Source of the DNA: Desulfosediminicola ganghwensis
Lineage (GTDB): Bacteria > Desulfobacterota > Desulfobulbia > Desulfobulbales > Desulfocapsaceae
DNA: 64,000 bases
Direction: 5' to 3'
Assembly (NCBI RefSeq): GCF_005116675.2
Contig: NZ_CP050699.1
Coordinates: 62,001-126,000 of the forward strand
The notes beneath the pieces were generated by a model, which saw only the letters and a list, made by a program, of their open reading frames with translations, was not told where the DNA came from and did no database searches. Both the position numbers and the translations under genes were made by a program. The number at the start of each line of letters is the position of its first letter. Position 1 is the first letter of the stretch. Of this stretch, positions 48,842-51,797 are shown in pieces.

Positions 48842-49804
48842 TTAATTTTTTCTCAAATAGCCCTGCACATACTCCACCGCTTCTGATCGGCCCAATGGTC
48901 GCAATGCAAAAAACAGTTCCCGGCACGCATTCAGATCAAGCATCCGGGCAATCTTTATGGTCTCCAGGTCATTTCTGGTGTAGGGAAAGTTTTCTTTGTC
49001 TTCCAGAATCTCTTCTTTCCAGACCAGCTTGGCATAGACCAGGGTCTGGGCACAGAGCATTTCGGCGCGGGCTTTACTGATCTTTCTGCCAAACATATAT
49101 GCCAGGGTCAATTCATCGCCCGGGGCAACCATGCTGCCCATATAGCCACTGGCGCGCATCTCCTCAAGTTCGATGAAATGTGTTTTCAACCGCCAGCCCC
49201 CGCCTTCGGCGGCTAACTGCTGAAAGAGGTATTTCTTCAGCAACAGGTGCATGGCCCCGGCTTCCACATAGATGCTGTCACTGTGCGGCAATAACTTCAT
49301 GATCTCAGTCGTCCGCAATTGGTCGCGCAGCCTGAAGCGCGCCGCATCAGCCCGGGCGAAAAGGTCCATGGCCCTTAGGATTTTCAGGTAATCTTTTCCC
49401 CGCACCGCCTTGTAATAGGCTATCAACCGCCCTGTGGCTACCCGTTCGTGATCATATACCTGAAACTCCACTGAGGAGCGATCTATATCAGCCGGCCCAT
49501 TACCATCCGCCAGGAAATCCTGTATCCGATAGAGATGATGCCAGAACGGCTCAACCTGCATCACCTTTTTGCCCAGTTTGTGAAAGTCCCTGACCAGCCG
49601 GTACTGCTCGGTAGAAAAAAGCGGATATTCGACGTCGAGTTCCAGCAGGTGATCTTCAATAGACTGTTGGCCCCCCAACATCTTGTAAAAGTCAGGGTGC
49701 GACGGCTCTTCAAGCACTATCAGCTTGCTGAGAGACATCAACTCGGCAGTTCTCTGCAGGGTTTCCGGTCGATGGGTAGACAAGGCCAGGGTCAGGGTTT
49801 TCAT
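48842..49804 (-). CDS. Conserved-looking protein of unknown function
   Basis: Cytoplasmic protein of 320 residues that I do not recognise. The frame is open to 49918, but that extension is low-quality sequence and the ATG at 49804 (MKTLTLALSTHRPETLQRTA) looks like a natural start. There is no signal peptide or membrane span. It is helical and charged, with a possible alpha/beta start (TLTLALSTHRPE, IVLEEPSHPDF) and a central segment IYVEAGAMHLLLKKYL. No cofactor motif is evident. The opening could suggest a nucleotide- or sugar-related alpha/beta fold, but this is weak. It is probably monocistronic. Confidence 0.7.
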   Translation of the reverse strand: MKTLTLALSTHRPETLQRTAELMSLSKLIVLEEPSHPDFYKMLGGQQSIEDHLLELDVEYPLFSTEQYRLVRDFHKLGKKVMQVEPFWHHLYRIQDFLADGNGPADIDRSSVEFQVYDHERVATGRLIAYYKAVRGKDYLKILRAMDLFARADAARFRLRDQLRTTEIMKLLPHSDSIYVEAGAMHLLLKKYLFQQLAAEGGGWRLKTHFIELEEMRASGYMGSMVAPGDELTLAYMFGRKISKARAEMLCAQTLVYAKLVWKEEILEDKENFPYTRNDLETIKIARMLDLNACRELFFALRPLGRSEAVEYVQGYLRKN

Positions 49805-50097
49805 TCGGTAACAGTAGGTACTCTTTGGGCAGAATCCAGTATTGCTGAACTCCGCACCGGCGGATTGATACCTTTTGCCCACACAATAACTCTTCGTGTA
49901 CCCATACAAATATGCCACCAGGCTTATTTCAGAAAAAATGCTATGACATTATGATTCAATTTCATTATGTTAGAGGGGTTTGTGAGTTCTATATACACTG
50001 GTTATCCCTGTTCACTTTCACATTTTTTTCGCAGGTGACAACCTCTAAAAATCATAAGAGATAACTTTTATTTATCATCCAGTTCAAGGAGTTGAGC

Positions 50098-50790
50098 ATG
50101 CAATACACTTCAGAAATCATGGAGATGTGCCGCGTTGCGCAGGGGGCAAATCATGGCCCCTCCCCCATACCCCAGGAAGGCGGTTGGACAAAGGCCAGAG
50201 AAGTAACCGATATCAGTGGTCTTACCCACGGTGTTGGCTGGTGTGCACCACAACAGGGTGCTGCCAAACTGACCCTCAATATCAAGAACGGCATAATTGA
50301 AGAAGCGCTGATCGAGACCCTGGGTTGCACAGGCATGACCCACTCTGCCGCCATGGCCTCAGAAATCCTGCCAGGTAAAACCATCCTCGAGGCAATGAAC
50401 ACCGACCTGGTTTGTGACGCCATCAACGTCGCCATGCGGGAACTGTTCCTGCAGATCGTTTACGGCCGCAGCCAATCAGCATTTTCAGAGGGCGGGCTGC
50501 CTGTCGGCGCCGGTATGGAAGATCTCGGCAAAGGCCTGCGCTCCGTTACCGGCACCACCTACGGTACCGCAGCCAAAGGCCCCCGCTATCTCGAGACTGC
50601 AGAAGGCTATGTTACCGAGATCGGTCTGGATGAAAACGATGAGATCATCGGTTATACCTTCGTCAACCTGGGCCGCATGATGGATGCTATTAAAAAAGGT
50701 ATCGATCCCGCCGAAGCATTACAATCCGCATCCGGCACCTATGGCCGTTTTGCAGACGCAGTTAAAACCATCGATCCAAGACACGAATAA
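50098..50790 (+). CDS. NifU/IscU-like iron-sulfur scaffold protein
   Basis: Protein of 230 residues, longer than IscU. An in-frame TTG two codons earlier is less likely than the ATG at 50098, which has AAGGAG six bases upstream. The IscU-like region keeps three cysteines in the scaffold spacing: C49 (GVGWCAPQ), C77 (ETLGCTGMTHSAAM) and C106 (DLVCDAI). The second half contains TTYGTAAKGPRYLE and no recognised domain. It is 11 bp before the GGGtGRT gene. The pair occurs together in many anaerobes by my recollection. The target of any Fe-S cluster is unknown. Confidence 0.8.
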   Translation: MQYTSEIMEMCRVAQGANHGPSPIPQEGGWTKAREVTDISGLTHGVGWCAPQQGAAKLTLNIKNGIIEEALIETLGCTGMTHSAAMASEILPGKTILEAMNTDLVCDAINVAMRELFLQIVYGRSQSAFSEGGLPVGAGMEDLGKGLRSVTGTTYGTAAKGPRYLETAEGYVTEIGLDENDEIIGYTFVNLGRMMDAIKKGIDPAEALQSASGTYGRFADAVKTIDPRHE

Positions 50791-50801
50791 GGAGACTGAC
50801 A

Positions 50802-51797
50802 ATGGCACTGTTTGAAAGTTATGACAGACGGATCGGTCAGATTACTCCGGTCCTGGAAGCGTATGATATGAAGAGCCTGGAAGAAGCGCGTGAGATTTGC
50901 CTGGCCAAAGGTGTGGATGTGGCCGAGATCGTTCGTTCCATCCAGCCGATCTGCTTTGACAACGCCTGCTGGGCGTATACCCTTGGTGCTGCGATCGCCA
51001 TCAGAAAAGATCTCACCAGGGCCGCCGATATCGCCGCCACCGTTGGAGAAGGTCTGCAGGCTTTCTGCATCCCCGGCTCCGTCGCGGATGATCGCAAAGT
51101 AGGCTTAGGCCACGGCAACCTCGCTTCCATGCTCTTAAAAGATGAGACGAAATGTTTCGCTTTTCTGGCCGGACACGAGTCCTTTGCCGCTGCGGAGGGC
51201 GCCATCGGTATCGCCAAGTCAGCTAATCGGGTACGCCAGACTCAATTGCGGGTAATACTGAACGGGCTTGGTAAGGATGCCGCCAAGATCATCTCCCGTA
51301 TCAACGGATTCACTTATGTGCAGACCCAGTTCGACTATGCTGCCGGTGAGGTGAAAATCGTCGGCGAGACCGCCTATTCAAAAGGTGAACGGGCAGAAGT
51401 CCGCTGCTACGGCGCAGACGATGTTCGCGAAGGTGTGGCCATCAATCATCTCGAGGGTGTGGATGTTTCTATCACCGGTAACTCCACCAACCCGACCCGT
51501 TTCCAGCATCCCGTTGCCGGCACCTATAAGAAAGAGTGTCAGCAGGAAGGCAAGAAATACTTCAGCGTCGCCTCAGGCGGCGGTACCGGACGTACCCTGC
51601 ACCCGGATAATATGGCCGCAGGACCTGCCTCTTATGGTATGACCGACACCATGGGCCGCATGCACTCCGATGCCCAGTTCGCAGGATCATCCTCCGTTCC
51701 CGCCCACGTTGAAATGATGGGTTTGATCGGCATGGGCAACAACCCTATGGTTGGTGCTTCTGTTGCTGTCTCAGTTGCCCTTGAACAAGCTAAATAG
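50802..51797 (+). CDS. GGGtGRT-family protein
   Basis: Protein of 331 residues named for the motif found at residues 259-265 (GGGTGRT) followed by LHPDNMAAGPASYG. Other features are an N-terminal cysteine in QPICFDNACWAYTLGAAIAI and a glycine-rich C-terminus (GLIGMGNNPMVGASVAV). There is no signal peptide. The family is of unknown function and partners with the NifU-like scaffold encoded just upstream (AAGGAG ribosome site in the 11-bp gap), which suggests a metal-cluster-dependent role. It ends before an intrinsic terminator. Confidence 0.85.
   Translation: MALFESYDRRIGQITPVLEAYDMKSLEEAREICLAKGVDVAEIVRSIQPICFDNACWAYTLGAAIAIRKDLTRAADIAATVGEGLQAFCIPGSVADDRKVGLGHGNLASMLLKDETKCFAFLAGHESFAAAEGAIGIAKSANRVRQTQLRVILNGLGKDAAKIISRINGFTYVQTQFDYAAGEVKIVGETAYSKGERAEVRCYGADDVREGVAINHLEGVDVSITGNSTNPTRFQHPVAGTYKKECQQEGKKYFSVASGGGTGRTLHPDNMAAGPASYGMTDTMGRMHSDAQFAGSSSVPAHVEMMGLIGMGNNPMVGASVAVSVALEQAK

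What the first reader, a model, noticed from the sequence alone, without database searches (positions are those of the whole stretch)
50098..51797. NifU-like scaffold paired with a GGGtGRT protein of unknown function
A long IscU-like protein with three scaffold cysteines (C49, C77, C106) and an uncharacterised C-terminal half is coupled to a GGGtGRT protein. There is no cysteine desulfurase nearby. A scaffold dedicated to one partner suggests an uncharacterised cluster-containing or cluster-inserting enzyme, and its recurrence as a pair in anaerobes makes it a good target.
Basis: partly seen in the sequence, partly recalled or inferred. Interest (0 to 1): 0.6.

Follow-up and report, generated by a model that had tools for sequence, protein, structure and literature searches.

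The report
Iron-linked IscU-fold/GGGtGRT protein pair
A two-gene unit shared by many anaerobic microbes encodes a modified iron-sulfur scaffold fold and a near-invariant partner of unknown function, and it looks more like one abundant iron-dependent enzyme or complex than a factory serving other proteins.

Summary
The pair is real and at the stated coordinates. The upstream protein is a distant IscU-fold homologue; the downstream one is full-length PF14057. Pairing held wherever it could be checked: 77 of 80 public-genome loci have both genes, and in the other 3 the contig ends just upstream. In 296 sampled genomes of the window's phylum, the 8 with the first protein are the 8 with an intact second one. 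No cysteine desulfurase was detected in the 80 loci.

The reading "scaffold that inserts a cluster into GGGtGRT" is not supported. C49, C77 and C106 of the IscU-like subunit are invariant in 97 of 97 sequences, while GGGtGRT has no invariant cysteine; two full-length members lack all three near-invariant ones. The scaffold lacks features tied to cluster release in IscU. Published data show the pair iron-responsive in Bacteroides (11-13-fold) and Clostridium (up to 7-fold); gut surveys find it expressed, sometimes highly.

Best reading: an obligate two-subunit, iron-dependent complex whose IscU-fold subunit keeps its cluster. Function is unproven.

Unlooked-for: the 3' end of the GGGtGRT gene appears to be an attachment site for integrative elements.

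The parts
50098..50790 (+). IscU-fold (NifU-like) subunit, 230 aa
   Evidence: ORF with Shine-Dalgarno; NifU_N in 30 of 30 relatives; hhalign to IscU-family profile prob 95.6
50212..50472 (+). IscU-like domain, residues 39-125
   Evidence: the matching stretch of the L098 read-through model aligns to human ISCU2 (8pk8_D), Z 6.8, 3.5 A, 88 residues, 22% identity; Z under 8 alone would not suffice, the sequence homology carries it
50242..50244 (+). codon of invariant C49 (aligned to IscU Cys1 with a 3-residue insertion after it; followed by APQQG, not GD)
   Evidence: 97 of 97; hhalign -glob
50326..50328 (+). codon of invariant C77 (IscU Cys2)
   Evidence: 97 of 97; hhalign
50413..50415 (+). codon of invariant C106 (region of the IscU Cys3 helix; exact register ambiguous; preceded by Val, not His)
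   Evidence: 97 of 97
50545..50745 (+). C-terminal part, residues 150-216, four strands and two helices; possible decayed second IscU unit
   Evidence: secondary structure; profile score vs IscU beats 198 of 200 column shuffles but probability only 6.9%
50789..50794 (+). Shine-Dalgarno of second gene, overlapping the stop of the first (50788-50790)
   Evidence: sequence
50802..51797 (+). GGGtGRT protein, PF14057, 331 aa
   Evidence: E 2.9e-194
51144..51575 (+). Rossmann-like alpha/beta domain of GGGtGRT, residues 115-258
   Evidence: AlphaFold model pLDDT 79.5, pTM 0.81; no clear PDB relative
51570..51722 (+). GGGtGRT signature region, residues 257-307; dense conservation, but largely unmodelled (pLDDT < 50 over 260-267 and 269-298)

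Best explanation
The two proteins form one obligate, stoichiometric, iron-dependent complex, most likely an enzyme. The upstream protein is an IscU fold turned into a permanent subunit: it takes its cluster (or iron) from the cell's general Fe-S machinery, holds it at C49/C77/C106, and does not pass it on. With three protein thiolates, a [4Fe-4S] cluster would leave one iron free for chemistry. GGGtGRT docks over this site with its conserved 257-307 region and its invariant His/Asp/Glu/Asn residues and supplies substrate binding. Shown: strict pairing in the loci examined, invariance of the three Cys, absence of invariant Cys in GGGtGRT, absence of the CGD Asp and of LPPVK, an operon of two genes. 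From papers: iron response and abundance. Inferred: complex formation, cluster, cluster retention, catalysis. The substrate is unknown; I cannot name the reaction.
For: Pairing: 77 of 80 loci, other 3 at contig edge (in L026 and L058 the first gene is split over two frames, in L092 it is cut by the contig end); first protein in 8 of 296 genomes (E <= 1e-20), the same 8 that have intact GGGtGRT, the 9th GGGtGRT match being a relic. Same order, 2-45 bp apart in 81 of 84 pairs with clean starts. C49/C77/C106 97 of 97; GGGtGRT C89 101/103, C118 101/103, C202 99/103, none invariant. Gly54 where IscU has the CGD Asp and Val before C106; D39A, D37A, D43A and H106A are tabulated as stabilising the cluster in IscU/SufU (PMC13423590, passages). 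No NifS detected near. In 12 carrier genomes checked, two Bacteroidota and one Akkermansia have no NifU_N match (E <= 1e-3) other than the pair's own protein. Iron: B. thetaiotaomicron BT0173-74 listed at -12.8 to -11 among down-regulated genes of the iron stimulon (PMC10434189, passages); C. pasteurianum F502_05012 7.1x (early) and 2.2x (late), F502_05017 2.4-3.7x (early) and 1.6-2.9x (late) higher with iron (PMC5395762, section 11). Abundance: 'nitrogen-fixing protein NifU' at 1.72, 1.47 and 0.28 in the three columns of a rumen metaproteome table (PMC6043501, passages); GGGtGRT 'highly expressed' by taxa such as five named chicken-gut ones (PMC11204068, passages). Codon adaptation 93rd and 91st percentile of 111 ORFs here. 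Read-through two-protein model pTM 0.73 although the two halves share only a disordered linker.
Against: No biochemistry exists in what I could find; cluster, complex and catalysis are untested. The pTM argument is indirect (no PAE seen; the linker forces proximity; the proteins are from Butyricimonas L098, not the window). The register of C106 against IscU Cys3 is ambiguous, so 'no His before Cys3' depends on it. IscU-type proteins can bind Zn instead of a cluster. The rumen 'NifU' rows are not proven to be this family. Absence of invariant G cysteines does not exclude iron bound by His/Asp/Glu of G. Codon bias is a proxy; by my reading the top of that list also holds exported proteins. GGGtGRT has no identified fold or active site, so 'enzyme' rests on conservation.
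Confidence: 0.45

Rival explanations
1. One reading: a dedicated scaffold that builds a cluster and inserts it into GGGtGRT, which is the Fe-S enzyme.
For: IscU-fold domain with three conserved Cys; strict pairing; iron response of both.
Against: GGGtGRT has no invariant Cys in 103 sequences and two full-length members lack all three near-invariant ones; the release-linked aspartate and LPPVK are absent; abundance suggests a structural subunit.
Confidence: 0.2
2. Iron or Fe-S buffer: the pair stores iron/sulfide when iron is plentiful and releases it when scarce.
For: Large rise with iron and fall on depletion; signs of high abundance.
Against: Conservation in GGGtGRT is rich in Gly/Ser/Asn/Thr with fixed His/Asp/Glu, more like a ligand or active site than a mineral surface (inference).
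Confidence: 0.15
3. Zn-bound, SufU-like sulfur relay acting on GGGtGRT or on a metabolite; no Fe-S cluster.
For: SufU shares the fold and its PDB chains are among weak hits; three conserved thiols.
Against: The CGD aspartate is absent; no desulfurase detected in 80 loci; iron-replete expression is not explained.
Confidence: 0.1

Closest known systems
IscU / NifU N-terminal domain (PF01592, TIGR01999, TIGR03419)
   Same: Fold of residues 39-125; Cys2 equivalent (C77); three invariant Cys
   Different: Window protein below curated cut-offs; no CGD Asp, no LPPVK segment, no His before C106, 3-residue insertion at Cys1, ~100-aa extra C-terminal part; no desulfurase detected nearby
SufU (TIGR01994)
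   Same: IscU-fold protein; weak hit
   Different: Scores 16.4 against a cut-off of 92.5; CGD Asp absent
PF14057 GGGtGRT
   Same: Full-length member
   Different: The family has no assigned function in the library used; nothing differs in this member

Membership tests
PF14057 GGGtGRT | Full-length profile match over cut-off | tested here: met
   644.8 bits vs 27, residues 4-330 on profile 1-327
IscU/NifU scaffold (PF01592 superfamily) | Homology to the NifU_N fold | tested here: met
   prob 95.6, 30 of 30 relatives; the single window protein is under the Pfam cut-off
IscU/NifU scaffold (function) | CGD motif with the aspartate used in cluster lability | tested here: not met
   CAPQQG; position 54 is Gly in 97 of 97, aligned to the Asp by hhalign -glob
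IscU/NifU scaffold (function) | LPPVK-HC segment (HscA site, Cys3 and its His; roles recalled, segment seen in canonical IscU rows) | tested here: not met
   no such segment in the alignment of 30; residue before C106 is Val in 97 of 97
IscU equivalog TIGR01999 | Score over curated cut-off | tested here: not met
   21.1 vs 192.4 bits
IscU/NifU scaffold (context) | Linked cysteine desulfurase | tested here: not met
   no PF00266 match in window; none detected in 80 loci, within the flanks held
Fe-S protein | Bound cluster | not testable with these tools
   needs anaerobic purification and spectroscopy
Known fold for GGGtGRT | Clear structural relative in PDB | tested here: inconclusive
   best Foldseek E 0.008, best VIA Z 7.9 with 116 residues at 3.5 A, generic Rossmann-like

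The most novel reading that the evidence does not exclude
An IscU fold has been captured as the permanent cluster-bearing subunit of a previously unrecognised, abundant, iron-controlled enzyme that has spread between phyla of anaerobes as a two-gene unit; the conserved region 257-307 of GGGtGRT closes over the cluster.
Probability: 0.3. Interest if true: 0.85.

Novelty: new variant of a known kind. Interest (0 to 1): 0.6.

Why it matters
It would be a major iron enzyme of gut and sediment anaerobes for which I found no assay in print, and a case of an assembly scaffold turned into an enzyme subunit. It is directly testable: two genes, cultivable carriers that include Bacteroides thetaiotaomicron, and a strong iron-dependent expression signal already published.

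Tried and rejected
Fold of GGGtGRT: Foldseek and VIA-align gave only generic alpha/beta rows; nitrogenase-like DPOR (Z 6.5) and phosphofructokinase rows were not taken as relatives because they do not stand out. Sequence searches of GGGtGRT against the PDB, and all 83 members of an alignment against Pfam and NCBIfam, gave nothing convincing; the most recurrent other hits were NeqB_N (17 of 83, best E 0.039) and a pantothenate kinase model (14 of 83, best E 0.0014), unrelated to each other; KamB (E 0.13) occurs in 1 of 83.

C-terminal half as a duplicated IscU unit: suggestive only (probability 6.9%, beats 198 of 200 shuffles; against the protein's own N-half 0.2%).

Operon partner: a C_GCAxxG_C_C (PF09719)-like protein lies within about 2.3 kb in 8 of 80 loci, 7 of them downstream (4 of the 8 checked and confirmed by Pfam); but PF09719 is in 180 of 296 genomes of the phylum, so I do not count it as a partner. 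No Rfam family in the window. Sigma-70-like sites upstream of the pair are only consensus matches.

Attachment repeats: exact-match searches in about 4 kb of the far ends of the five viral records behind L102-L106 and in about 17 kb downstream of L072's GGGtGRT found none. Four of six 'phages' records carrying GGGtGRT (L151-L154) were opened; I recognised no integrase in them by eye and they look like host DNA.

Literature: 'GGGtGRT' occurs in 9 papers of the library; I saw passages of 7, one section of one of these, and only the listing for the other two. One of them (PMC9942572) names it within a virulence-factor survey of Clostridium innocuum; I give that no weight. 'GGGtGRT'+'integrase' gave 2 papers, which I did not search for a link between the two words.

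Full report
What is there. The second is a full-length PF14057 protein. The first hits NifU_N weakly, but its profile (window plus 84 relatives) against an IscU-family profile gives probability 95.6, E 1.1e-8 for that single comparison; the IscU profile came from 16 proteins, 4 of this genome and 12 of other genomes, rows over 40% gaps dropped. 30 of 30 relatives hit NifU_N. The window's genome (5.65 Mb) holds one GGGtGRT. It also holds a NifU next to a NifS-like PF00266 gene at 3.308 Mb, far from here, and three more NifU_N proteins. So the cell has a general assembly system and this pair is something else.

Pairing. In 77 of 80 the IscU-like gene is immediately upstream on the same strand; in the other 3 the contig ends 120 bp or less upstream of GGGtGRT. 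In two of the 77 (L026, L058) the IscU-like gene is split over two frames and in one (L092) it is cut by the contig end. All 11 hits kept from two other-phylum searches are paired, 9 of them new, as are Vibrio and Persicobacter. In 296 genomes sampled from the window's phylum, own genome included, intact GGGtGRT occurs in 8 and the IscU-like protein in the same 8; the ninth GGGtGRT match is a 69-aa relic. Other samples, each counting its seed genome: 1 of 198 (the seed alone) and 9 of 199 genomes in the phyla of a Butyricimonas and of Clostridium neonatale. A same-strand ORF within 150 bp upstream was found in 0 of 69 loci; the nearest upstream ORF of either strand (ATG starts, 60 aa or more) is 166 bp away; 18 of 75 have a same-strand ORF within 150 bp downstream, of varied kinds. 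The unit is therefore in essence an autonomous two-gene operon.

Spread. Identity between members is high (mean 77% for the IscU-like protein, 81% for GGGtGRT; pairwise identities of the two correlate at r 0.71 over 85 pairs of proteins; no species-tree control). In the GGGtGRT tree (74 of 80 loci plus the window) starred branches force at least 4 changes for Thermodesulfobacteriota and for Bacillota; two Methanobrevibacter rows sit with four Bacillota on a starred branch. This fits transfer between phyla; mis-binned contigs could explain part of it. The 80 loci are the best-scoring ones, so diversity is under-sampled.

Which protein carries the metal. Across 97 IscU-like sequences C49, C77 and C106 never change; C56 is present in 94 but is Ala in the window and in Vibrio. 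Across 103 GGGtGRT sequences no cysteine is invariant, while H104, H125, H236, H302, E126, E132, D159, E210, E218, D269, D282 and D290 are. Two divergent full-length members, L116 and L117 (66% and 64% identical to the window), lack all three near-invariant cysteines, and their partners keep the three; 99 of 103 do keep all three. If a Cys-bound cluster exists in every member, it belongs to the IscU-like subunit. This is the strongest result against the insertion model.

Scaffold features lost. The alignment puts C49 on IscU Cys1 with a three-residue insertion and Gly54 on the CGD aspartate; position 54 is Gly in 97 of 97. The LPPVK-HC segment visible in canonical IscU rows is missing, and the residue before C106 is Val in 97 of 97. 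The register of C106 is uncertain: hhalign places it near, not on, Cys3. A 2026 review tabulates that D39A (E. coli), D37A (S. pombe), D43A (B. subtilis SufU) and H106A increase cluster stability, and that the aspartate is needed for efficient release (PMC13423590, passages). A natural protein without that Asp would be expected to hold its cluster; that step is inference.

Structure. GGGtGRT alone: pLDDT 79.5, pTM 0.81, a helical N-terminal part, a Rossmann-like domain, and an unmodelled region 260-298 although this stretch is among the most conserved. A read-through of the Butyricimonas pair (L098) gave pTM 0.73; with unrelated placement of two domains of 230 and 332 residues I would expect about 0.5 (my estimate), so some mutual packing is predicted, but I saw no PAE. 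In that model residues 39-125 match IscU chains (VIA Z 6.8, 88 residues, 3.5 A; Foldseek E 0.056-0.085, probability 0.98-0.99, for the two best). The C-terminal half may be a decayed second IscU unit; evidence is weak.

Expression and iron. In B. thetaiotaomicron the pair is listed at -12.8 to -11 among genes down-regulated in the iron stimulon, which I read as iron depletion (PMC10434189, passages). In C. pasteurianum GGGtGRT is 7.1-fold (early) and 2.2-fold (late) higher with iron excess, the largest value in the 'higher at Fe+' iron columns of that table, and its NifU neighbour 2.4-3.7-fold (early) and 1.6-2.9-fold (late) (PMC5395762, section 11). GGGtGRT and NifU are named among expressed or differing gut and rumen proteins (passages); the rumen table gives NifU 1.72, 1.47 and 0.28 in its three columns. 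In Akkermansia a NifU gene falls modestly with bile (-0.779), not clearly iron related. In the window's genome codon adaptation to ribosomal genes is at the 93rd and 91st percentile of 111 ORFs. An iron-responsive C. difficile dataset lists only the canonical IscR-IscS-NifU cluster in the passages I saw, so nothing can be said there.

Verdict. Known domains, unknown function; I found no experimental characterisation of the pair (searches; subscription papers are mostly outside that library). The best reading is a two-subunit iron-dependent complex with a retained cluster (0.45); dedicated insertion into GGGtGRT 0.2; storage 0.15; sulfur relay 0.1.

Side finding. The 6 virus-collection contigs found with GGGtGRT, and 3 of 80 genome loci (L042, L049, L072), carry a PF00589 integrase directly 3' of it (9 of 9 confirmed by Pfam). 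Searching with six of these integrases gave 6 hits in the 80 genome loci; 3 lie within 120 bp of the GGGtGRT 3' end, the other 3 are kilobases away. In the record behind L107 a 233-bp repeat (97.9%) of the gene's last 168 bp plus 64 bp beyond recurs about 14 kb away, followed by a second ORF whose start resembles the first integrase by eye; in the genome of L049 a 93-bp repeat (94.6%) ending at the stop codon lies on another contig. So the 3' end of this conserved gene looks like an attachment site. The repeat was not found for the other five viral records or for L072, and for L042 only one 17-base motif was sought.

Noticed in passing
L102-L107, L042, L049, L072 (just 3' of GGGtGRT); G708 and G709: Tyrosine integrases of several types sit directly downstream of GGGtGRT in the 6 virus-collection contigs found and in 3 of 80 genome loci; 3'-end repeats of 233 bp (L107 record) and 93 bp (L049 genome) suggest that the gene's 3' end is an attachment site. 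No repeat found for six others.
   Followed up: partly
L029, L054, L060, L068, L095 (directly downstream); L077, L092, L099 (within 2.3 kb): C_GCAxxG_C_C (PF09719)-like protein near the pair in 8 of 80 loci of Bacteroidota and Bacillota (4 of 8 confirmed by Pfam); the family is common anyway (180 of 296 genomes).
   Followed up: partly
PF09719 matches in the 296 genomes: Many PF09719 matches read through one in-frame TGA, as might be expected of selenoproteins (for example in G053, G107, G266).
   Followed up: no
L021:1450-1659 (-): 69-aa relic of GGGtGRT in genome G193, which has no match to the IscU-like partner: a decayed pair.
   Followed up: partly
window 50263-50265: The window's IscU-like protein has Ala at position 56, where 94 of 97 relatives have Cys; Vibrio shares the Ala.
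   Followed up: partly
window 48842-49918 (-): 358-aa ORF divergent from the pair with no Pfam match at E 0.001.
   Followed up: no
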